This document shows positions 3,952 through 17,429 of a stretch of 49,671 nt of DNA, one piece after another; position 1 is the first letter of the stretch, and the number at the start of each line of letters is the position of its first letter. A model generated the notes under the pieces. The model had not been told where the DNA came from and ran no database searches. It saw nothing but the letters and a program-made list of their open reading frames with translations. Where the stretch lies: the NCBI GenBank assembly GCA_010365215.1, contig JAAFGT010000021.1:12672-62342 (forward strand), written 5' to 3'. The stretch comes from Acidipila sp. (GTDB taxonomy: Bacteria > Acidobacteriota > Terriglobia > Acidiferrales > UBA7541). Position numbers and translations under genes: made by a program.

Positions 3952-6900
3952 ATGAACTGTATCCAGAGCGACGTGACGCAAAACTTTAGAAATTACCCGC
4001 ACTTCTTTTGGGCTCTTTTGGTTAAACGATTCAATACGCCGGCCCTTTTGGCTTTTTTCTGTGTGGTCCTTTTGTGTGCGATGCCGGGCGTCATGCACGC
4101 CCAAGCGACCGGAGGCGATATCACCGGCACAGCCAGGGGCGACTCCGGCGCGGCGATGCCTGGAGTCGAAATCGCTATCAAAGACGTTTCCACCGGCCTG
4201 GTCCGGACGGCGCTCACCGATACCTCCGGCTCGTACCGCCTGCTCGCACTGCCTGCCGGCAAGTATGAACTGACCGCTTCTGCTTCCGGCTTCGTCACCC
4301 AACTGTGGACGGACATCACGGTAACGGGCGGAAGCAGGCGAGCGCTCAATATTGTTATGCGTCCCGGGCGGTCCGAAACTGTGGTGCGCGCCGCCGTACC
4401 CGCCGCGTCTGTGGGTCAATCGCCCGGTAACGTCGACAGTTCCGTGGCGCAGAATACTCCGCTCAATGGGCGCGATTGGGCGCAGCTTGCCACATTGCAG
4501 GTTGGAGTCACCGGGGTTCAAACCGGAAGCTCCAGCGGCGGCGGAAATACCGAACGCGGGTTTGGAGCACCGATCAGCATCTCCGGCGCACGGCCCGACC
4601 AGAACAGCTACCGCCTGGATGGAATCAGCATCAACGATTATTCCAACGGCGCTCCCGGCAGCGTCCTCGGGGACAATCTCGGAATCGACGCGGTCGAGCA
4701 GGTATCCGTTCTGGAAAGCAATTATCCTGCCGAGTACGGGCGGACCTCAGGCGGCGTGATCAATGCGGTGACGCGTTCCGGTACCAAAGCGTTCCACGGT
4801 GACGTTTACGAATTCTTTCGCAATAGCGCGCTGGACGCGAGAAACTTTTTTGACGGCGCAATTCCTCCGTTCCGACGCAATCAGTTTGGCGCTTCAGCGG
4901 GCGGGCCCGTACAGAAGGGCCGCACGTTCATCTTTGGGGACTACGAAGGTCTTCGCCAGTCACTCGGCGTGACCACGGTTGATACCGTCCCGTCGCCTGC
5001 AGCCTTGGGGCTCAATACAGGGCCGAACGGAGGGCCGGGCCCCGCCACTCTGTGCTCGATTCCGCAAACCGCGCTGCAATTTCCACCGAACGGCTGCACA
5101 ACTACGCAGATTCCGCTAAGCGGTCCAGGATCCGCCGTCAATCCGGATCCCATCACGCATATCGATCAAGGAGTTTTTCCGTTCCTCCGCGCATTTTATC
5201 CGTTGCCCAATGGTCCACTGCTGGGTAATGGCGATACAGGACTTTTTTCCTTCGCCGGACAGGAAGTAACCAATGAAAATTATTTCACTGTCCGCGTGGA
5301 TCGCAAGTTTTCAGATCGAGACGCGCTGGCGGTGACCTACATGCGCGACAACTCCAAAACGGTGCAGCCCGACAATTTCAACGAGCTGCTTTCCAATATC
5401 GTCTCCAGGCGCCAGGTGGTAACCGTTCACGCCCAGCATGTCTTCAGTCCCACCTTTCTGAATACCGCTCGACTGGGTTTCAGCCGCTCGGTTGGCGTGA
5501 TTGGAGGCGTAACCAAGATTTTTAACCAGAATTTGCTGAACCCGTCTTTCGCATTCGTGCCCGGAGCCTTGGCCGGTGTCGTTGCGGCGGTACCCGGCGT
5601 AACCAACTTCCCAGGTGCGCCCACTACCAAAGGAATTCTGCTTTCCAGCAAATCTCTCGCGTGGAATTCGTTTCAAGGCGGCGATGATGTTGTTTTCACC
5701 CACGGGATTCATATCATTAAGTTCGGCGCGCTGGTTGAGCGCATGCAGGACAATTCGCTATCGCTGGCTGCCGTAAACGGGCTTTTTCGCTTCGATTCGT
5801 TGCTTAATTTTCTGACCAACCGGCCCCATGTATTTCAGGGATCCGGCACCGCTACCGTTCCCGATATCGGATTGCGCGAGACACTGTTCGGAGCCTACGT
5901 GCAGGACGACGTGCACTGGCAGAAACATTTCACTCTCAACCTGGGCTTGCGCTATGAAATGGTGACCGTACCCACCGAGGCGCATAACCGCGTCTCCAAC
6001 CTGCGCCACCTCACCGACGCCGTGCCGCAGGTAGGCTCGCCGTTTTTTGTGAACCCAACCTTGCGGAATTTCGAGCCGCGTTTCGGCTTTGCATGGAATC
6101 CGCGGGCTGGAAAGACGCTGCTGCGCGGAGGTTTTGGAATTTTCGACGTGTTGCCGCTGCCTTACGAGTTTCAGAATTCCTTCCAGCGCGCTGTGCCGTT
6201 CGTGCAGACCATCTTCGCCAGTACTCTTCAGCCCGGCATGTTTCCCACCGGTGCTTTTCAGCAGTTCAGCATGCAGGCGAACTTCGGGCTGGCCACCTAC
6301 GTCGAATTCCATCCCAAGCGCAACTACGTCATGCAGTGGAATCTGGGGATCGCCAGGGAACTGAGTTCGACGCTTTCCGTAACCATCGGATATGTCGGCT
6401 CTCGTGGTGTCCACCTTCCCTACCGCATGGACAACATCGATATGGTGTTGCCCACGCTGACTCCTACAGGCTATGTGTTTCCGCCAACAGCCACCAGCAG
6501 CACGCTAAATCCGAATTTTGGGCGCATCGATTCGATGCTATGGCAGGCCAGCTCCGCGTATAACGCCCTGCAAGCCGACATGACCAAGCGAGTCACCCAC
6601 GGCGTCGAATTGCATGCCGCATACACCTGGGGCAAGAGTATAGACACGCTCTCCGCGACCGCGGCGGATGATGCATTTCCGAATGGCCTGTTCAACCAGC
6701 TTTTCTTTGATCAGCACACTACGCGCGGACTCTCGGACTTCAACGTCGCGCAAACTTTTGTACTGAGCTTCACCTGGGAACTTCCCAACCCCGGCCGGCG
6801 CGAAAGAGCCTTGGCGTGGGCAGCCAGCGGTTGGCAATTAGGCGGGCTTTATAAAGCAAGTTCCGGCCAGCCTTTCACGCCAATCCTGGGCGGTGATCCT

Positions 6901-9575: not shown

Positions 9576-11819
9576 TTGAACAATAAAATAGACAGCGTCA
9601 TCGAGCAGTTGGCAAAAAATCAGCACGACGAGTGGGCGCGCCGCCGCCGCGCAGACGGCTGGACTTACGGGCATGCCCGTGACGACGTACGGAAGCAGCA
9701 CCCGTCGCTGGTGCCTTACGAAGAGTTGCCGGAGTCCGAGAAAGAGTACCAGCGCGGCGCGGTCTTGCAGACCATCAAGTCCCTGCTGGCGCTCGGATAC
9801 AAAATCGAGGAGCCTGACGCCGCCCTGGGGAATACTCCGAGTGGGGATACTCACCGTTCAGGCCCCGCCGAGAATGCTTCTGCTCAACGTGATTCGTTCG
9901 TCTTGCCTAATATCGGCACCTCGGATTTGCATGCGCTTTTAAGGTGGTGGCAGGAGCGTCCGCCAGAAGGGTGGCCTCAATCGCCGGGTGTCTACCAGCA
10001 AGTGGGAGAGCGGATGCTCACGCTCGGCGAGCCTTTGCTCGCTTACGATGTGCTCGCCGAAGGTCTCACCACATTTCCCGGGGAAACGCGCTTGCAGCAA
10101 TTGCTGGCACTCTCGCTTGCACGCAGCGGCGCGACGCGCCAGGCAAACGAGATGCTCGTGCAAATTCAATCTAGCGGTGAAAGCAGCGACGAGACTTCCG
10201 GCTTGCTGGCGCGCACCTTCAAGGATCTGGCGTTCCAGGAAGTCGATGCCGTGAAACGCAAAGAGCGGTTAACCCACGCCCAGCAGGTCTACCAAAAGGC
10301 CTATCGTCAATGGGGCGGCTATTGGAACGGGATCAATGCAGCCACGTTATCGCTGCTGCTCGGCCAACAGGAGCAGGCCGCTGCCATGGCGGTGGAGATT
10401 CGCCAGCTTTGCGTGGAAGCTTTCGAAAAAATAAACAAAGAGGGAGACCGCTACTGGCCGTTGGCTACGCTTGGGGAAGCCGCGTTGATCCAGCGGAAAT
10501 GGCCGGAAGCGGAAGATTGGTACCAGCAGGCTGCGGCGGTGGGACAGCGGCGATTCGGCGACTTAAGCTCCACTCGCCGCAACGCGCGCCTGCTACTCGA
10601 ATACCTTGGCCGCGACCGGCGATGGATCGAGCAGTGCCTGCGCATCCCCCGCGTTGCCGTTTTCACGGGGCACATGATTGACCAGCCGGGGCGCTCCGCG
10701 CCCAGGTTCCCGCCCCAGCTCGAGGGCGCCGTCCTCAAAGCCATTCGCGAGCGTCTGAAAACCCGGGATGTTGGTTTTGGTTATGCATCGGCGGCAAGCG
10801 GCTCCGACATTTTATTCCTGGAAGCTCTGCTCGAGTCCGGCGGGGAGGTCCGCGTCGTTCTGCCCTACGAAAGCAAGATGTTCCTTCGCGACAGCGTGGA
10901 AGCGATTCCCGGCTCGAACTGGGGCGAGCGCTTCCAAAGCGTGCTGCAGCTGGCGCGCGAGGTGGTTACGGTGTCGGGCCAACGGCTAAGCGGCGGAAGT
11001 ATTTCGTATGAATATGCCAACGACATACTGTTGGGGCTGGCCATAACGCGCAGCGAACAACTGGAAACCGAGCTCGTTCCGCTGGCCGTCTGGGATGGAA
11101 AAGCCGGAGACGGCCTGGGCGGTACGGCCAACGCGATCTCCCGGTGGGAAAGCCTGGGATATAAAGTGGAGTTGATTCATCTGAATAAGATTTTACAAAA
11201 TCAGAGCCAGGAGATGATCCATATCGGCGCCGCGCCTCCTGCGGCTCCCAAGGTTCCTGAAGCAAAGCCTTCCGACGAGTATGTTCCACGAATCATGGGA
11301 ATTTTCTTCGCCGACGCCGCGGGATTCAGCAAACTCACGGAAGAGCAGACACCGCGATTCGTGCAGTATTTCCTGCAAATGGTAGGCGAGATGGCGCGAA
11401 CCTCCCGCCACAAACCGGTGATGAAGAACACCTGGGGCGACGGTCTCTATTTTATTTTCGAGCGGGTGATCGATGCCGGCGAGTTTGCCTTGGAGTTATG
11501 CGACGCGGTGAAGAATGCCCGATGGGAAAACACCGGCCTGCCCCAGTTGAGCGTGCGCATCGGATTACACGCCGGGCCGGTGTATCGCATCATCGATCCG
11601 GTAACGGGACAGCCCAATTATATCGGGACTCACGTAAGCCAGGCGGCGAGAATAGAACCGATCACGCCGCCCAACCAGGTTTACGCCAGTCAAGCTTTTG
11701 CAGCGCTGGCTTCAGCGGACCCGCACAAGACATTTAAGTGCGAGTATGTCGGCCAAACGCCGATGGCAAAAGGTTACGGGACTTTGCCCACCTACGTGGT
11801 CCGTCGCCTGCGCGTCTGA
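9576..11819 (+). CDS. RyR / TPR-TRAFs-binding-like / SLOG-like / class III nucleotide cyclase protein
   Basis: This 747-residue soluble multidomain protein opens with a RyR domain (about 6-80; the core WARRRRADGWTYGHARDD and LVPYEELPESEKEY is characteristic). A helical TPR-like region follows (about 110-350), resembling the DUF4071/TRAFs-binding region. Then comes a Rossmann-type segment (about 360-550; VAVFTGHMIDQPGR, ASGSDILFLEALLESG, VVLPYESKMF) that looks like a SLOG-type nucleotide-binding fold. It ends with a class III cyclase catalytic domain (about 572-745). Metal-binding Asp580 (FADAAGFS) and Asp622 (NTWGD) and the transition-state Arg692 are present. The purine-specifying positions are Asn618 and Asn681 instead of Lys/Asp, and the usual ribose-binding Asn is Ser688. 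The TTG start is the first after an in-frame stop at 9558. The gene converges on the TIR/nSTAND/barrel operon. The product nucleotide is unknown. Confidence 0.85.
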   Translation: MNNKIDSVIEQLAKNQHDEWARRRRADGWTYGHARDDVRKQHPSLVPYEELPESEKEYQRGAVLQTIKSLLALGYKIEEPDAALGNTPSGDTHRSGPAENASAQRDSFVLPNIGTSDLHALLRWWQERPPEGWPQSPGVYQQVGERMLTLGEPLLAYDVLAEGLTTFPGETRLQQLLALSLARSGATRQANEMLVQIQSSGESSDETSGLLARTFKDLAFQEVDAVKRKERLTHAQQVYQKAYRQWGGYWNGINAATLSLLLGQQEQAAAMAVEIRQLCVEAFEKINKEGDRYWPLATLGEAALIQRKWPEAEDWYQQAAAVGQRRFGDLSSTRRNARLLLEYLGRDRRWIEQCLRIPRVAVFTGHMIDQPGRSAPRFPPQLEGAVLKAIRERLKTRDVGFGYASAASGSDILFLEALLESGGEVRVVLPYESKMFLRDSVEAIPGSNWGERFQSVLQLAREVVTVSGQRLSGGSISYEYANDILLGLAITRSEQLETELVPLAVWDGKAGDGLGGTANAISRWESLGYKVELIHLNKILQNQSQEMIHIGAAPPAAPKVPEAKPSDEYVPRIMGIFFADAAGFSKLTEEQTPRFVQYFLQMVGEMARTSRHKPVMKNTWGDGLYFIFERVIDAGEFALELCDAVKNARWENTGLPQLSVRIGLHAGPVYRIIDPVTGQPNYIGTHVSQAARIEPITPPNQVYASQAFAALASADPHKTFKCEYVGQTPMAKGYGTLPTYVVRRLRV

Positions 11820-11895: not shown

Positions 11896-13065
11896 CTAGA
11901 ACGAAAACCGGTATTCCAGCCTGAAGATGTCCGTATACCACTCCGATTGCGTGAGCGCGTGCCCGTACCCGGCATAGACGGAGTTGCGATTGCCGAACGA
12001 TGTGCGGGCCCCCAATTTGATATTAACGATGTTGATGCCGCCCGTCTCCCTCGCTGCGCCAAACACCGGCCCGCCCGGCTGGGTCTGAAATCCACCGAGC
12101 ACGTGCCAACCCACCAGCTCGACGACCGGCGCGATGCGCACCGACTCGCCGCGATAGAGTACGTAGCTGGGCCCGAAGCCATAAAAGAAAACGTCGCCGG
12201 CGAATTTCTCCGAGCCGGATACCGGAACTCCCGAAGACCTTCCAATGGGATGCCAGCCTCCCATCTCCGCCTCGAACGATGCGCGGTCTGTTATCTTCTG
12301 GTAGTACAGCAACGTTGGCTCGACACTGAAGTGGTTGGTGCCCAGACCCTTCGAAGGATCGCCGGAGGGGAAATACATTTTGAACTGGAAAGTCAGGTAA
12401 CGCTGGGAATCGGCAAGCGCGGCAACTTTAAATCCAGCGCGGATATCGGAGAGTCCGCTTTGGCTCGAAAACGCCGGGAAGGGCGGAATCGGCAGGAAAG
12501 AATTGGGCTGGATCCAACGAAACGGAATCTCCACAAACGCGGAGAAACGGCGGTGTGGCGAAAACTCAGCGTTCAAATAGAGCTGCTGGAAGTTTAAGGA
12601 TTTCGGCACACCCGGCCCCGGTCCGGCGGCGTTGGGATCGAATGCCTGGGGTATGGCCGTCGCCAGTCCTTTATAGCAGCCGCATTTCGCGTAGAAGAAC
12701 TCGGCGAGATCAGGGGTGCTGTTGTTAAACCCGGCATCAAAGCGAATGCGCAAGTGGGATCCGACAATTGCGTTGTCGATGTACCCGACCATGCTGCCTT
12801 CCGTCTTTGGCCTTTTTGTTTCGTCGCTGGGCTTGGTGGCTTGCGACGTCTTTGCTTTTTTCGGCGCCGAGGCGGGCTCCTGCGCGAGGGCAAATTCCGC
12901 GCGCCCGGGTTCCACTGTGACGTCCAGATCGTTTCTAGCGAGCAGCGAATCTACCGGCACTGAAACGGCCGCAACTTGTTGTTCGTTCGGGAGGCTAGTA
13001 TCCCGATCTTGAGCGAACAAGACTGCCGGCACCAGCAGACTCAAGACCACAACGAATCGCTTCAT
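11896..13065 (-). CDS. Outer-membrane beta-barrel protein
   Basis: This 389-residue protein has a signal peptide (residues 1-18, ending LFAQD) and a Lys/Pro-rich stretch (about 55-85). A run of alternating amphipathic strands follows (LRIRFDAGFNN, FSAFVEIPFRWI, YLTFQFKMYFPSG, PTLLYYQKI, NSVYAGYGHAL), and the protein ends YRFSF, the terminal Phe expected for barrel insertion. It resembles the MetA-pathway phenol-degradation-like barrels, but the substrate cannot be predicted. I chose ATG 13065, preceded by AAGGGGG, over an upstream frame opening. The gene lies 48 bp after the nSTAND gene on the same strand and is probably its operon partner, which is unusual company for a porin-like protein. 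Confidence 0.8.
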   Translation of the reverse strand: MKRFVVVLSLLVPAVLFAQDRDTSLPNEQQVAAVSVPVDSLLARNDLDVTVEPGRAEFALAQEPASAPKKAKTSQATKPSDETKRPKTEGSMVGYIDNAIVGSHLRIRFDAGFNNSTPDLAEFFYAKCGCYKGLATAIPQAFDPNAAGPGPGVPKSLNFQQLYLNAEFSPHRRFSAFVEIPFRWIQPNSFLPIPPFPAFSSQSGLSDIRAGFKVAALADSQRYLTFQFKMYFPSGDPSKGLGTNHFSVEPTLLYYQKITDRASFEAEMGGWHPIGRSSGVPVSGSEKFAGDVFFYGFGPSYVLYRGESVRIAPVVELVGWHVLGGFQTQPGGPVFGAARETGGINIVNIKLGARTSFGNRNSVYAGYGHALTQSEWYTDIFRLEYRFSF

Positions 13066-13113
13066 CTTTAACCCCCTTAAACTCGTTAACTCATACAAAT
13101 TTGGGCGGTACGG

Positions 13114-15933
13114 CTACTTACGTTTGCCAAGCTTATCACGCAATTTCTGCTCGATTCCATCGGCAGCTTTTGCCAGGTTTCTACGTTCGGGGTCGGGTAT
13201 TTCCGGCAGCAGGCGCGATAAATTATCCAGCGCGCTCTGCGCATCCGCGTAGGATCCCGAGGCCAGGCTGATCCTGGCGAGGTCCAAAAAATTATAGCCA
13301 AGATCCCGGAAAAGCAGCGCGACTTCGGGACGACTCGATTTTCGCACCTTCTTCAGTTGCGTCAGGATGTCCAAGGACCGCTGGCTCTCCGCTTTCGCCG
13401 CGGCGGCGTTTGACTGTGCCGCTCCGGGCGATTCCAGGATCTGCGCGCCCAAATTATGGGCTTTGACCAGCTCAACGCTGAGCGAGGGCGCCGGGCTGGT
13501 CAGCTCATCGATCAAGCCGATGGCTTGCCGGTTTCTTTTTCTGGCCAATTCCAGATCTCCCTGGTCCAGCAGCAACAAGGCCAAATCGTCATAATAGGTG
13601 GCCAGCTCGAACTTGTATTCCCGGTTGTCAGGCTTCTCTTTCGTCAATCTCTCGCCAATTCCGAGCGCTTGCTCGTAGAATACGCGAGCGTCCGCCAGGC
13701 GATTTTCGCTTCTCAGCAGCGTTCCCAGGTTGTTATCGGCGCGCGCCAATTCTTGAGCCGGCCCGAAATTGACGCCGCTCCCCGCCAAAGGTTCGAGCAG
13801 GTGAATCGCCTCGCGGAAGTCCGCTTCCGATTGCTCAACGCGTTTTGTCTGGTAAAGAAGAATGCCGCGATTGTAGTGAGTGCGCGCCAGCTCCCGCTGG
13901 TACACGGGGACGTTCCCCGCTCCGTCGCGGGGCAGGGCCTGCTGGAGTTGTAGAGCGCGATTGTATGCTTCCTCCGCCGCCGAGCTTGTGGCGCCGTCCG
14001 CCCGCAGTGTTTCACCCAGCCAGTTGTAGGAATTAGCCAGCGCCTGGCGGTATTCCGGCTTGCCGGGATATTTTGCGGTGAGAGCCTGGAATTGGGTAAT
14101 GGCCTCCCGGTATTCGGAGGCCGCATCGCTATTTTCTGAGAGCAGCCGGTGGATGTCCCCCAACCGGAAGTAGGCCCATCCCATTTCTATGGCCAACTGC
14201 TCGCTGTCGGGTTTCTGTTTCGTGAAATTGGTGTAAAAGGCTTTAGCCTTTTGCAAAAGCTCCTTGCGGAATTCCTCCATCTCCGGAACATCCGCCGCCA
14301 CGCGAGCCTGCTCGCGGCCTGCCGACGACAACATTTCATTCACCGCTGCTTGCGCCAGCTGCAGGTTCTGCTCCGCGCGAGCTTTTTCTTTGCGTGCAAT
14401 CTGCGCCAGAAACAGCGCAGCCACCAGCAGGATGGCAAGAATCCCGGCCGCCCACTGGTACTCGCGGAGCTTCTTTTTTCGTTCTTTTTCACGCAGCGCA
14501 ATAAAACCGTCGCGGACCTTTTCGCTGCGATCCAGGAACTGCATCGCGCGATCGAAGTGCGCATCGTAGCGCTGCGCCCAGGCCGCGGTGGGCTGGTTCT
14601 TCCGCTTCCAACCCAGCGCCGGATCGAGCTCCGGCGTGCGCCAAAGGCCCGCGGTCCCTTCCCCGAACCAGGCAGCCGCCTGCGACAGGCGCATGTAATA
14701 ACCGGCGGAAATTTTCTCCTCTTCCGCCCAAGCCATCAGCCGCGTCCAGCAGCGCATCAGGCTTTCGTGCGAAAGATCGATGATCGAGCGCGCGTCCAGC
14801 GGAATCACGGGAGGCGGCATCAGGAAAGAACGCCCCTGACGCCGGAAAATCTCGATGACCTGGATCACTTCCTTTTGAGGCACCTCGCAAACAGCGGTTA
14901 ATTCCTGAACCGTGCTGGGGCGCCGGACGCCACGCTGATCTGAAAACGTGTCGGTCAGGGCCTTGAACATCTTTTCCGCGATCAGCCGGCCGCGGTCAGA
15001 CCCGGTTTCCTGATAGGCCTCCTCGGCGTGCCGGGAGAGCGCCTGCCGCAGGGTTCCTACGGCCTCATAGTCAGCGACGTCGATGGGCTCGCCCGGCTGG
15101 CGATGCTGTTCCCAGTGATCCCAGGTTCGCATCAAGGCGTGCTGCAGCACGGGAAGCTGATCCTGATCGTCTCCCAGGTCGTTGAGCAGGCGCAGAACCA
15201 GGCGCGGGGCTATTTCTCCGCCGCCGACCGCGACCGGACCGGTGATGACGGAGCGCAATTCGTCGCGGGTCATGCGCGGAACGAGGTGTTGACCTTTGTT
15301 GACGGCTTCCGGCAGGCGGGGAAATTCCATGCAGTCGCCGATGAAATCGGAACGCATGGTGAGCACAACGTAAATCGGAAGAGCCTCCTGGGCCGTCGCT
15401 TCCAACAGCAGCTTGACGAAGGCTACCGCCTCGTCGCGGGAATTGGCAATCTGCCGGCTGCGCCGGAAGCGGAAAAGCTCCTCGAACTGATCCACTACGA
15501 TCAGCACGTTGTCGTGCGGCGAAATCCTCGCTTGCCGCACGGCGTCCACCAGCCCTCGAGAACTGCGGCGAAGCGTTGCTTCGAGCAACACGCGGTTGGT
15601 GCTGGCCAGCTCTTGATTTGTTCCCAGCACGTCCGCGGGGCTGAGCGATTCAGCCAGATGCCCGATGGGATCCTCGCCCGGGCGAAGCCTGGCTACGCGC
15701 CAGCTCGAGCCGGCTTTAACCATGAATCCGCTGTACAGGGCCGGGATCAGACCGGAGCGGACGAGGGAAGACTTTCCACTGCCGGAAGTGCCGATGACGG
15801 AAACAAACCGGCAGGAACGCAGCCGCCGCAGCAGCTCGTCGATTTCTTTTTCGCGGCCGAAAAAAAGATGATCTTCTTCGGCCTCGAACGGACGAAGGCC
15901 CGGGAATGGGTTAAACAGGGCTTGAGGTTCCAT
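13114..15933 (-). CDS. nSTAND-type P-loop ATPase with membrane segment and TPR C-terminus
   Basis: This is a 939-residue STAND-class signalling ATPase. The N-terminus carries the nSTAND1 signature NPFPGLRPFEAEEDHLFFGRE, a Walker A GTSGSGKSS (Lys54) and a Walker B VLIVVDQFEELF (Asp148). A winged-helix-like region follows, then a single hydrophobic helix (about 490-512) after a KKLREYQW segment. Next is a coiled coil (ARKEKARAEQNLQLAQAA) and, from about 550 to 840, tetratricopeptide repeats. STAND proteins act as ATP-driven switches that oligomerise on sensing a ligand or partner. The TPRs are the likely sensor; the effector is presumably the TIR protein encoded 20 bp upstream. ATG 15933 is preceded by AGGAGG about 12 bases ahead; a TTG one codon earlier is the alternative. 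Confidence 0.88.
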   Translation of the reverse strand: MEPQALFNPFPGLRPFEAEEDHLFFGREKEIDELLRRLRSCRFVSVIGTSGSGKSSLVRSGLIPALYSGFMVKAGSSWRVARLRPGEDPIGHLAESLSPADVLGTNQELASTNRVLLEATLRRSSRGLVDAVRQARISPHDNVLIVVDQFEELFRFRRSRQIANSRDEAVAFVKLLLEATAQEALPIYVVLTMRSDFIGDCMEFPRLPEAVNKGQHLVPRMTRDELRSVITGPVAVGGGEIAPRLVLRLLNDLGDDQDQLPVLQHALMRTWDHWEQHRQPGEPIDVADYEAVGTLRQALSRHAEEAYQETGSDRGRLIAEKMFKALTDTFSDQRGVRRPSTVQELTAVCEVPQKEVIQVIEIFRRQGRSFLMPPPVIPLDARSIIDLSHESLMRCWTRLMAWAEEEKISAGYYMRLSQAAAWFGEGTAGLWRTPELDPALGWKRKNQPTAAWAQRYDAHFDRAMQFLDRSEKVRDGFIALREKERKKKLREYQWAAGILAILLVAALFLAQIARKEKARAEQNLQLAQAAVNEMLSSAGREQARVAADVPEMEEFRKELLQKAKAFYTNFTKQKPDSEQLAIEMGWAYFRLGDIHRLLSENSDAASEYREAITQFQALTAKYPGKPEYRQALANSYNWLGETLRADGATSSAAEEAYNRALQLQQALPRDGAGNVPVYQRELARTHYNRGILLYQTKRVEQSEADFREAIHLLEPLAGSGVNFGPAQELARADNNLGTLLRSENRLADARVFYEQALGIGERLTKEKPDNREYKFELATYYDDLALLLLDQGDLELARKRNRQAIGLIDELTSPAPSLSVELVKAHNLGAQILESPGAAQSNAAAAKAESQRSLDILTQLKKVRKSSRPEVALLFRDLGYNFLDLARISLASGSYADAQSALDNLSRLLPEIPDPERRNLAKAADGIEQKLRDKLGKRK

Positions 15934-15953
15934 CAACCCTGCCTACCTCCTCG

Positions 15954-17429
15954 TTAGACCTTTATTCGAGAGATGAATGGCTCTAAAGGACCGGCCGCAA
16001 AACCGTCGAATTGAGGAATGACCACGGCTTCGTGCGTTTTAAAGCGCTCTTTCTCCGGCGTTTTCGGCGTTATCAGAGAAATCCCAATGGCCGGCTGCGG
16101 CTTGGTGCGCCCGTACCCGGCGCTTTTTTGCAGTTCGCGAAGTTTCCGGCGCAGCCAGCATTCGTTGCCGGATCCATAAAAAATCAGCGCGGCGTCGCAA
16201 ACGCGCAGGTTCTCTTCATGGTATTCGCGAATTTCCGCCTCGTCGCCCTCGAATACCGGATGCATAACTTCAAATTTCTGTTCGAACAGGAAATCCGCCC
16301 ACGGCGCGACGATGGCGGTGTCCCGCTGATCGTAGATCAGGTAGAGCTGGGCGATTCTTGTGCCCGCCGCCAGCGGCGCTGCCGATACAGGCACCGGCGC
16401 GCGCTTCAGCCGGTCCTGGATGACCGTGGTCAAATCTTCGAGAAAAGTTTCCAGCAAGTCCGCGCCGGCTTGCATGCGGGGATCCATGCGCAGACGTTCA
16501 ATTACTTTGCGTTGGCGTTCGTCCTCCAACTCCAAACCGGGAGGGATCCACAGGATGCGCGAAAAATCGCCTTCCTCGCCTCGTTCGATGGCCACCTCGT
16601 TCTGAAGTTCCAGAAGAGATTCCACGCCGCCCTCGGGGACCAGGCTGTAACTTTTCCCAATCAGATGAATGGACATCCGGCAGCGCGACATATCTGCCCG
16701 GACCATTTCGATTACTTCGGATGCGACGCCAGGCAATGGACTGGCAGGGAGCACGGTGTAGCCGTGTTGCTGCAAGTCTCGCTTGATGGCTTCGCGCTGC
16801 TCTTTTAAATCAGAGGTGGTCTCCGCCAGATAAACCGGGTCCTCTTTTGCCTCAGGTCTGGGATCGGCCATTCCCTCCGGGCCTTCGAGCATCTCCAACA
16901 CGCAACAGATGTCGTGCGCCAGATCGTCAAGCCTCAGCCAGAAATCCCTCTGCGCCTCAGGGCCGAAAATTTCGTCGAGCTCATAGACGCGCCCGGTATC
17001 CGGATCGACCTTGAAAAACTCGTAGCCCAGCAGCGGCTTCAACTCCGCGGGATGCAAATCCAAAGCCACCGGCGTCTTGAGCACTTTGAAGATGCGCGCT
17101 TTGTCGCAGCAGCTGACTCCACCCTGGGCTTCCGCAGCCTGAACGAATTCAGCCAGTTCCCGGCGAGCCCACTCCGACCTCACATAGCGCGGCGAAACCA
17201 CGGAGACCAGCGCCGCAACATGCCGGAGGCGCTCCACCAGCGTCTCGGCGAAAAGATCGTTACCTTGGAGTTTTGGGTCGCGCCAGATTTGCGGCGTTTT
17301 TCCGAGGAGTTGCCCAACGCGGACTTCCAGAGCGCGATGAAGGTTAGCTACCCATCCCTTGCGCCCCTCAATCAGCTCCACGTTATCCAGGTGCGCATAG
17401 CTAATGAAAGCGTCACCCTCAAAATTCAT
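15954..17429 (-). CDS. TIR domain protein with DUF4062-like middle and second TIR-like domain
   Basis: This is a 491-residue cytosolic protein. Residues 1-140 form a TIR domain (DAFISYAHLD at 6-15; WRDPKLQGND at 49-58; SEWARREL at 85-92). Glu62 and Glu91 are candidates for the catalytic glutamate of NAD-cleaving TIRs. Residues about 195-350 (YLAETTSDLKEQREAIKRDL, then CRMSIHLIGKSYS) resemble DUF4062, a domain often joined to STAND and TIR modules. Residues about 365-485 (QLYLIYDQRD, CDAALIFYGSGNECWLRRKL) look like a second, diverged TIR fold. The ATG at 17429 has AAGGTGAC ahead of it. It is the first gene of an apparent operon with the nSTAND ATPase (20 bp apart). Bacterial TIR proteins commonly degrade NAD or make signal nucleotides during phage defence; the activity here is untested. 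Confidence 0.82.
   Translation of the reverse strand: MNFEGDAFISYAHLDNVELIEGRKGWVANLHRALEVRVGQLLGKTPQIWRDPKLQGNDLFAETLVERLRHVAALVSVVSPRYVRSEWARRELAEFVQAAEAQGGVSCCDKARIFKVLKTPVALDLHPAELKPLLGYEFFKVDPDTGRVYELDEIFGPEAQRDFWLRLDDLAHDICCVLEMLEGPEGMADPRPEAKEDPVYLAETTSDLKEQREAIKRDLQQHGYTVLPASPLPGVASEVIEMVRADMSRCRMSIHLIGKSYSLVPEGGVESLLELQNEVAIERGEEGDFSRILWIPPGLELEDERQRKVIERLRMDPRMQAGADLLETFLEDLTTVIQDRLKRAPVPVSAAPLAAGTRIAQLYLIYDQRDTAIVAPWADFLFEQKFEVMHPVFEGDEAEIREYHEENLRVCDAALIFYGSGNECWLRRKLRELQKSAGYGRTKPQPAIGISLITPKTPEKERFKTHEAVVIPQFDGFAAGPLEPFISRIKV

What the first reader, a model, noticed from the sequence alone, without database searches (positions are those of the whole stretch)
11299..11720. Class III cyclase domain with altered substrate-specifying residues
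Both metal Asp residues (580, 622) and the catalytic Arg (692) are kept. The positions that read adenine (Lys and Asp in adenylyl cyclases, Glu and Cys in guanylyl cyclases) are Asn618 and Asn681, and the ribose-orienting Asn is Ser688. Conserved metal sites with changed base-reading sites suggest an active enzyme for an unusual base or product, perhaps like the pyrimidine cyclases of Pycsar. It may instead be a shared trait of cyclases with a TRAFs-binding region.
Basis: partly seen in the sequence, partly recalled or inferred. Interest (0 to 1): 0.7.

Follow-up and report, generated by a model that had tools for sequence, protein, structure and literature searches.

The report
TIR-linked sensor cyclase, altered base pocket
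A bacterial signalling protein joins a predicted sensor of NAD-derived signals to a nucleotide-cyclising enzyme whose base-reading residues are rewritten in the same way across many phyla, so the messenger it makes cannot be read from its sequence and has to be measured.

Summary
The residues are as reported. The window gene (9576-11819, +; 747 aa) ends in a class III cyclase domain with D580, D622 and R692 kept and N618, W620, N681, S688 in the pocket. This is a family trait: of 81 aligned members, N618 stands in 76 and W620 in 79; of 79 class III cyclase stretches from the same phylum, none has either and 73 have Lys at 618. S688 is looser (Ser 61, Asn 10) and has active precedents. The protein is RyR - TPR-S - SLOG - cyclase; the unannotated middle domain folds like YpsA (Z 18.6). 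A TIR-domain gene is adjacent in 23 of 81 loci, 9 phyla (24 of 154 adjacent ORFs against 7 of 383 two to four genes away). Best reading: a TIR-linked sensor-cyclase, probably switched on by an NAD-derived signal, active but with a non-canonical pocket of unknown product. The Pycsar analogy is loose: no adjacent cyclic-nucleotide-binding receptor was found, and PycC membership is not shown.

The parts
9576..11819 (+). RyR - TPR-S - SLOG - class III cyclase protein (747 aa, TTG start)
   Evidence: ORF; Pfam; AlphaFold2 model pLDDT 90.0, pTM 0.84
9579..9809 (+). RyR domain (aa 2-78)
   Evidence: PF02026 E=4.5e-25; found in 23 of 61 members scanned, the window included
10065..10484 (+). TPR-S / MAP3K TRAFs-binding helical region (aa 164-303)
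   Evidence: PF20308 E=7.6e-18 and PF13281 E=1.2e-6; TPR-S in 60 of 61 members; fold match to the ASK1 central regulatory region, Z 21.3, rmsd 3.2, 243 residues, model 106-400
10644..11216 (+). YpsA-like SLOG domain (aa 357-547), no Pfam hit
   Evidence: model of aa 342-556 pLDDT 94.1; YpsA Foldseek E 1.1e-7, prob 1.00 and Z 18.6 over 161 residues
11274..11816 (+). class III cyclase domain (aa 567-747)
   Evidence: PF00211 43.8 bits; Z 22.6, rmsd 2.0, 170 residues to RhGC with GTP
11313..11315 (+). D580, metal Asp 1
   Evidence: 79 of 79 rows with a letter, 2 rows gapped
11427..11435 (+). N618-T619-W620, altered base-reading segment
   Evidence: N 76, A 3, E 2 of 81; W 79, R 2 of 81; 0 of 79 in the background for both
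11439..11441 (+). D622, metal Asp 2
   Evidence: 81 of 81
11616..11618 (+). N681, second base-reading position
   Evidence: N 33, T 18, S 12, others 18 of 81; D or E in 63 of 79 in the background
11631..11639 (+). H686-V687-S688 (S688 in place of the ribose-orienting Asn)
   Evidence: H686 74 of 81 against 2 of 79 outside; 688 S 61, N 10, T 6, A 2, V 2 of 81 against N in 76 of 79 outside
11649..11651 (+). R692, transition-state Arg
   Evidence: 80 of 81; L089 is the exception
13114..15936 (-). nSTAND1 NTPase with TPR repeats, companion gene
   Evidence: PF20703 E=5.1e-96; near the cyclase gene also in L034 (67% identity) and L037 (58% over 521 aa)
15954..17429 (-). TIR_2 + DUF4062 protein, companion gene
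   Evidence: PF13676 E=9.6e-9; relatives next to the cyclase gene in L034 (69% identity, 25 bp gap, same strand) and L037 (47%, divergent)

Best explanation
The gene encodes a cytosolic sensor-cyclase of a TIR-linked signalling module. Shown: the anatomy RyR - TPR-S - SLOG - class III cyclase, the family-wide non-canonical pocket (N618, W620, often N/S/T681, usually S688) with intact metal and transition-state residues, and a recurrent TIR gene next door across nine phyla. Inferred: on attack or stress the TIR protein (here in a cluster with an nSTAND1 NTPase) turns NAD into an ADP-ribose-type signal; the YpsA-like SLOG domain, helped by TPR-S and RyR, binds it, much as ThsA SLOG binds TIR-made cyclic ADPR; this brings two cyclase domains together and they make a cyclic nucleotide that is relayed onward. 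The base is not read by the adenine Lys/Asp pair or by the guanine Glu. Asn618 and the bulky Trp620 read and shape the pocket, so the substrate may be GTP, a pyrimidine NTP or a loosely selected mixture. Rough probabilities: catalytically active 0.85; TIR signal acts upstream through SLOG/TPR-S 0.5; main product is not cAMP 0.6.
For: Residues and family fixation. Same-phylum background without these residues. Not caused by the search patterns: of 24 loci found only through the HV[SA] pattern, 22 have NTW and 2 have EDR; in two genome searches that fix no motif, all 8 members with a readable cyclase have W620, 7 with N618 and 1 with A. Family on one side of a branch with the eight trait columns left out, SH-aLRT 77, moderate. 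SLOG fold, with ADPR-bound TRPM2 and BcThsA SLOG-3'cADPR among lower matches. ASK1-like TPR region and cyclase fold. TIR in 24 of 154 ORFs at +-1 against 7 of 383 at +-2 to 4, Fisher p = 9e-9 with ORFs taken as independent; Pfam TIR_2 in 12 of 66 and 9 of 63 adjacent ORFs. ThsB-to-ThsA precedent: passages of PMC9503650.
Against: No TIR gene was detected at +-1 in 58 of 81 loci (some contigs are cut), and in the window it is the third gene over, 4.1 kb away. No receptor for the product was identified. BcThsA SLOG is only a middling fold match (Z 6.9, in the range the tool calls possibly just a common arrangement). Ligand-binding residues were not compared. No activity has been measured, and a coupled but catalytically dead, nucleotide-binding domain is not excluded. 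RyR matches only 23 of 61 members. The tree support is under 80 and the tool warns of long branches. Loci are not independent.
Confidence: 0.5

Rival explanations
1. An ordinary adenylyl cyclase that makes cAMP despite losing the canonical residues, as Rv1900c and Ma1120 show is possible for part of them.
For: Ma1120 is an active AC with Ala at the catalytic Asn position (passages of PMC4215837). Rv1900c lacks that Asn (His) yet is active (passage of PMC4886424); that it also has Asn at the Lys position (N342) is my recall of EMBO J 2005, which is not held. The fold match to these two (Z 21.6 and 21.4) is within about 1 of the best.
Against: In Rv1900c these are one enzyme's relaxed positions. 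Here N618 and W620 stand in 76 and 79 of 81 members across phyla, which looks selected rather than relaxed. Asp or Glu at 681 remains in only 5 of 81 members.
Confidence: 0.3
2. A non-canonical guanylyl cyclase: small polar residues at 681 as in GCs, with Asn doing part of the job of Glu at 618.
For: GCs tolerate C, S, T, H, A or G at the second position (passages of PMC4215837). L092, L100 and L186 carry Glu at 618. The best fold match is RhGC with GTP (Z 22.6) and the four best profile matches in the PDB are GCs.
Against: Glu at 618 is in only 2 of 81 rows plus L186. Fold ranks within 1 Z are ties. N, the commonest residue at 681, is not in the list given for GCs.
Confidence: 0.3
3. A pyrimidine (UTP or CTP) cyclase that works like Pycsar, with N618 reading the pyrimidine and W620 filling the purine space.
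For: The changed positions D2-4 and D2-2 are those of EaPycC R142 and Q144, which are among the residues needed for cCMP synthesis, and D2-2 is K104 in AnPycC (the position counting is mine). Asn reads uracil in PycTIR and in a CD-NTase subclade. TIR is the commonest partner.
Against: The residues of EaPycC and AnPycC are not shared at these two positions. No cyclic-nucleotide-binding domain is among the families listed for 10 TIR partners, though 3 of the 4 longest lists and one other were capped at 25. PADLOC PycC E=0.0033 with an unspecific model.
Confidence: 0.3
4. A degenerate cyclase domain that only binds a nucleotide or serves as a dimerisation module.
For: Kaur et al. 2020 describe catalytically inactive cyclase domains in other conflict systems (passages).
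Against: D580 in 79 of 79 rows with a letter, D622 in 81 of 81 and R692 in 80 of 81 argue for retained catalysis.
Confidence: 0.12

Closest known systems
Class III nucleotidyl cyclases (RhGC, Ma1120, Rv1900c, Rv1625c)
   Same: Fold (Z 20.1-22.6), two metal Asp, transition-state Arg
   Different: N618/W620 and N/S/T681 instead of the Lys/Asp or Glu/Cys pairs; Ser usual for the ribose Asn; H686
Pycsar (PycC with PycTIR or PycTM)
   Same: Class III cyclase with altered pocket; TIR gene as frequent neighbour; departs from ACs at the same two pocket positions as EaPycC
   Different: Sensor domains fused to the cyclase; TIR partners scanned carry TPR, WD40, kinase or membrane parts and no CNBD was listed; pocket residues differ from EaPycC and AnPycC; no AnPycC-type zinc ribbon; product unknown
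Thoeris (ThsB TIR with ThsA SIR2-SLOG)
   Same: TIR gene beside a SLOG-containing gene
   Different: Output is a cyclase, not SIR2; SLOG is closer to YpsA (Z 18.6) than to BcThsA (Z 6.9); TPR-S and RyR added
TPR-S / RyR / SLOG nucleotide-centred conflict networks (Burroughs et al. 2015, recalled, not held)
   Same: Same domain vocabulary next to TIR and STAND genes (recalled)
   Different: Whether that paper lists this exact architecture or the NTW pocket could not be checked
ASK1 (MAP3K5) central regulatory region
   Same: Fold of the TPR / TRAFs-binding region (Z 21.3)
   Different: Bacterial; coupled to SLOG and cyclase, not to a kinase

Membership tests
Class III nucleotidyl cyclase | Cyclase fold and PF00211 above cut-off | tested here: met
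   43.8 bits against 21.9; Z up to 22.6
Class III nucleotidyl cyclase | Two metal-binding Asp and transition-state Arg | tested here: met
   D580, D622, R692
Class III nucleotidyl cyclase | Active site shared between two protomers, activity | not testable with these tools
   Only monomer models; no assay
Canonical adenylyl cyclase | Lys at 618 and Asp (or Thr/Ser, class IIIb, recalled) at 681 | tested here: not met
   N618; K in 0 of 81 family rows
Canonical guanylyl cyclase | Glu at 618 | tested here: not met
   N618 in the window; E in 2 of 81 rows and in L186
Pycsar PycC | Pyrimidine-cyclase activity | not testable with these tools
   No assay
Pycsar PycC | Specific match to PycC profile | tested here: inconclusive
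   PADLOC PycC E=0.0033; model also rings in 94 of 119 genomes and its best hit there, L114, has an ordinary Lys pocket
Pycsar PycC | Clade E CTP residues R(D2-4), Q(D2-2) or clade D residue K(D2-2) | tested here: not met
   N618 and W620 in the window; residues of EaPycC and AnPycC from PMC11224242. Clades A-C not compared residue by residue
Pycsar PycC | Clade D C-terminal zinc ribbon (three Cys, one His) | tested here: not met
   Protein ends with the cyclase domain; one Cys after aa 695
Pycsar system | Adjacent CNBD-TIR or CNBD-TM receptor | tested here: inconclusive
   Single-query search with a CNBD-like stretch of L114 (judged by eye) hit 1 of 537 neighbour ORFs of 81 loci, L068 +3, none of the window's; none listed for 10 TIR partners with Pfam, 4 lists capped, nor for the window's neighbours scanned
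Thoeris-type TIR-SLOG relay | SLOG domain in a gene near a TIR gene | tested here: met
   SLOG fold; TIR at +-1 in 23 of 81 loci, third gene over in the window
Thoeris-type TIR-SLOG relay | SIR2 NADase output | tested here: not met
   C-terminal domain is a cyclase and no SIR2 match is listed
Thoeris-type TIR-SLOG relay | SLOG binds a TIR-made cADPR isomer | not testable with these tools
   No binding assay; pocket residues not compared
TPR-S family (PF20308) | Profile match above cut-off | tested here: met
   65.4 bits against 27.6

The most novel reading that the evidence does not exclude
A two-messenger immune relay: a TIR enzyme makes an ADP-ribose-type signal, a YpsA-like SLOG/TPR-S/RyR sensor reads it, and the fused cyclase converts it into a second signal made from UTP, CTP or another unusual substrate by an Asn/Trp pocket that I found described for no class III cyclase in the papers seen. 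It would be a cyclic-nucleotide branch parallel to Pycsar and downstream of Thoeris-like chemistry, spread over 16 named phyla (by record titles).
Probability: 0.2. Interest if true: 0.85.

Novelty: new variant of a known kind. Interest (0 to 1): 0.6.

Why it matters
Base specificity in class III cyclases is usually predicted from two residues. Here is a widespread family in which the first is fixed to something else and the second is mostly not the usual acid, often next to TIR genes, so the rule fails and the product is an open, directly testable question. If the relay is right, NAD-derived and cyclic-nucleotide signalling, so far treated as separate defence chemistries, are wired in series in one protein. 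It also gives the unannotated middle part a fold, and warns that the PADLOC PycC model is not specific.

Tried and rejected
Rejected: Lys617 as the specificity residue (variable, not in register). Rejected as proof of Pycsar: the PADLOC PycC hit (unspecific). Rejected as decisive: S688 (Asn in 10 of 81 members; Ala or His in active cyclases). Led nowhere: viral contigs (28 pattern matches, 0 relatives), phage records (no match), NCBIfam (nothing above cut-off for the cyclase protein). L011 carries TPR-S and SLOG but its C-terminus runs into unread letters, so its output domain is unknown and it is left out of residue counts. PycC structures do not appear among the 50 listed fold matches; that is no evidence against kinship. 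A pocket comparison in 3D was not possible, since no model coordinates were found in the Python box. Papers: Burroughs 2015, the Rv1900c paper and Tal 2021 are not held.

Weaknesses of my own counts. The 80 loci are the best 80 of 176 relatives and were found by two short patterns, one of which fixes [NA]TWGD[GA]LY and the other HV[SA][RQH][AT]ARIE; for the two halves apart. Organism and phylum names are record titles, mostly of MAGs; 3 of 80 have no phylum. The background of 79 stretches was drawn from PycC-profile hits (mostly the strongest) plus seven loci; L001 with L185, L002 with L126, L033 with L141 and L028 with L140 are stretches of the same four genes, so it holds about 75 genes. ORFs in neighbourhoods were called by length with my own script; the local TIR profile was trained on neighbours at all distances and includes two doubtful rows (L057 +2, L071 +2), the first of which counts among the 7 of 383. 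The +-1 ORFs scanned with Pfam were 129 of 154: ORFs under 120 aa or with unread letters and three cut at a contig end (L059, L078, L111) were left out. The Pfam lists for neighbour sets show only the 25 commonest families, so rarer domains there were not seen.
Full report
Observation. The ORF at 9576-11819 on the + strand gives 747 residues from a TTG start. Pfam finds RyR (aa 2-78), TPR-S (164-259), MAP3K TRAFs-binding (172-303) and Guanylate_cyc (575-742). The stated residues are there: D580, N618, D622, N681, S688, R692. The register is supported by alignments to solved guanylyl cyclases and by invariant spacing in all 81 rows of the family alignment.

A family trait. Two searches of the same 396 genomes of the phylum fix no motif: one with the whole protein (69 genomes match, mostly by a single domain) and one with the middle domain alone (16 genomes match). 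Nine genomes, the window's included, hold a middle-domain match with E below 1e-30. Eight of the nine have a readable cyclase: N618 in 7 of 8, Ala in 1; Trp620 in 8 of 8; N, S or T at 681 in 8 of 8; at 688 Ser in 6 and Ala in 2. A scan of the genome collection (one genome per species, 84,980 by the tool's description) gave 176 relatives, of which the best 80 were kept. With the window that makes 81 rows: N618 76, A 3, E 2; W620 79, R 2; D622 81; R692 80; D580 79 of 79 with a letter; 681 N 33, T 18, S 12, others 18; 688 S 61, N 10, T 6, A 2, V 2; H686 74; H665 81. The scan patterns bias this, so I split it: of 24 loci that match only the HV[SA] pattern, 22 have NTW and 2 EDR; of 35 that match only the TWGD pattern, 688 is S 17, N 10, T 6, V 2. 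Of three plasmid members found without patterns and read, a divergent one (L186, Caballeronia) has Glu at 618 and no Trp, another (L187, Rhizobium) has NTW, without TPR-S or SLOG, and the third (L188) lacks that part. So NTW is the rule, with exceptions, and S688 is not strictly part of it.

Background. In 79 class III cyclase stretches of the same phylum (about 75 different genes), 618 is K 73, E 2, none N; 620 is I 56, none W; 681 is D or E in 63; 688 is N 76; 686 is H in 2. The window's own genome has two further cyclases, both with Lys at 618 (L001 and L002). With the eight trait columns left out, the family stands on one side of a branch from the background (SH-aLRT 77, below the 80 under which the tool draws forks open, and with long-branch warnings).

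What the residues allow. PMC4215837 (passages) reports that Ma1120, an active AC, has Ala at the ribose-Asn position and that guanylyl cyclases vary widely at the second base position. PMC4886424 (passages) says Rv1900c has His in place of that Asn and is active. PMC11224242 (passages and the first part of section 7) gives pocket residues of PycCs: EaPycC F100, R142, Q144 with metals D102 and D146; AnPycC F60, K104, F109 with D62 and D106; BcPycC Y50, D94, R97. Counting from the metal Asp (my inference), R142 and Q144 sit at the positions of N618 and W620, and K104 at that of W620. The family has therefore rewritten the pocket at positions a cytidylate cyclase uses, but with other residues. 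This does not name the base.

Anatomy. AlphaFold2 on the full protein with 58 relatives gives pLDDT 90.0. The middle region alone (aa 342-556) gives 94.1. Its best solved match is YpsA of Bacillus subtilis (Foldseek E 1.1e-7; Z 18.6, rmsd 2.8, 161 residues), followed by DprA (13.1), LOG enzymes (about 10 to 11), ADPR-bound TRPM2 (8.9) and BcThsA SLOG with 3'cADPR (6.9): a SLOG domain. The TPR region matches the ASK1 central regulatory region (Z 21.3) and the cyclase matches RhGC (Z 22.6), Ma1120 (21.6) and Rv1900c (21.4). Of 61 members scanned (window, 58 of the 80 loci, L005 and L012), TPR-S is in 60, Guanylate_cyc in 59, MAP3K_TRAF_bd in 51 and RyR in 23.

Neighbours. Using my own ORF calls around 81 loci, a TIR domain is found in 24 of 154 ORFs directly adjacent to the cyclase gene (23 of 81 loci, 9 phyla) and in 7 of 383 ORFs two to four places away; Fisher p = 9e-9, with the caution that loci are related. 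Pfam agrees: TIR_2 in 12 of 66 and 9 of 63 adjacent ORFs, not among the 25 commonest families at +-2 (99 ORFs; nSTAND1 in 6, the window's included) or +-4 (91 ORFs). Sixteen of the 24 are on the cyclase strand, several with gaps of 25 to 116 bases. The ten partners scanned are TIR proteins, most with TPR, WD40, kinase or membrane-protein-like matches, and no CNBD is listed, though 4 of the 10 lists were capped at 25 families; a search with one CNBD-like stretch hit 1 of 537 neighbour ORFs. In the window a minus-strand cluster TIR-DUF4062, nSTAND1-TPR and a Phenol_MetA_deg-type gene lies beyond the cyclase gene. Both TIR and nSTAND1 are kept in L034 (cyclase, 25 bp, TIR, nSTAND1 on one strand) and L037 (divergent). 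On a Tolypothrix plasmid a shortened cyclase gene is followed by an annotated TIR gene.

Mechanism. Shown: architecture, family-wide pocket, intact catalytic residues, TIR linkage. Inferred: the TIR product is sensed by SLOG/TPR-S/RyR, following the ThsB-to-ThsA precedent (PMC9503650 passages), and turns on a cyclase that makes a second messenger of undetermined base. The evidence does not separate GTP, pyrimidine and relaxed ATP use; I give them similar weight.

Known or new. Searches of the held library for 'TPR-S' with cyclase and RyR domain (none), with nSTAND and conflict systems (none) and alone (two unrelated papers), for at least three of TRAFs-binding, adenylate cyclase, TIR domain and bacteria (54 papers, 15 listed, none of the 15 with TRAFs-binding), for 'cyclase domain' with SLOG and TIR (one paper, Kaur 2020, of which passages describe cyclases in other systems) and for 'TRAFs-binding domain' with cyclase (none) found no description of this family or pocket. 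Burroughs 2015, where I recall TPR-S and its partners being defined, is not held, so earlier mention of the architecture is likely and could not be checked. I file it as a new variant of a known kind.

Noticed in passing
L187 (Rhizobium beringeri plasmid pRlX2) 4983-6056: A family cyclase with NTW but no TPR-S or SLOG, followed in the same protein by a stretch that reads like a NUDIX domain (by eye, not scanned), and with an annotated NUDIX hydrolase gene next door.
   Followed up: partly
L188 (Tolypothrix sp. PCC 7712 plasmid) 4899-5333: Shortened cyclase gene, 145 aa, lacking the part with the metal-binding residues, followed after 92 bases by a TIR-domain gene.
   Followed up: partly
L092, L100 (titled Planctomyces sp. 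SH-PL62 MAGs) and L186 (Caballeronia): Family members with a guanylyl-cyclase-like Glu at 618 and no Trp at 620; a natural set for testing base choice.
   Followed up: partly
window 11896-17429, - strand: Three genes with gaps of 15 to 17 bases: TIR-DUF4062, nSTAND1-TPR and a Phenol_MetA_deg-type protein, probably one operon convergent with the cyclase gene.
   Followed up: partly
aa 106-547 of the window protein: Fold match of the TPR region to the regulatory region of the animal kinase ASK1 (Z 21.3), and of the SLOG domain to a part of TRPM2 (Z 8.9): eukaryotic stress and calcium signalling parts in a bacterial protein.
   Followed up: no
L015, L016, L017, L019: RyR domains in open frames of 617 to 928 aa in other genomes of the phylum; on the contigs of L016 and L017 a weak SLOG match lies near: perhaps other RyR-SLOG proteins.
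   Followed up: no
PADLOC model PDLC00734 (PycC): Rings in 94 of 119 genomes; its best hit there is a cyclase with an ordinary Lys pocket and a CNBD-like N-terminus by eye, so annotation of Pycsar by this model alone is unsafe.
   Followed up: yes
L080, L084, L085, L087 (Verrucomicrobiota): An unknown gene of 392-428 aa directly precedes the cyclase gene in all four, with a subtilase-like gene before it in L080, L084 and L085.
   Followed up: no
window 15954-17429: The TIR protein also matches the FxsC N-terminal TIR-like model (42.9 bits, below its cut-off of 130).
   Followed up: no
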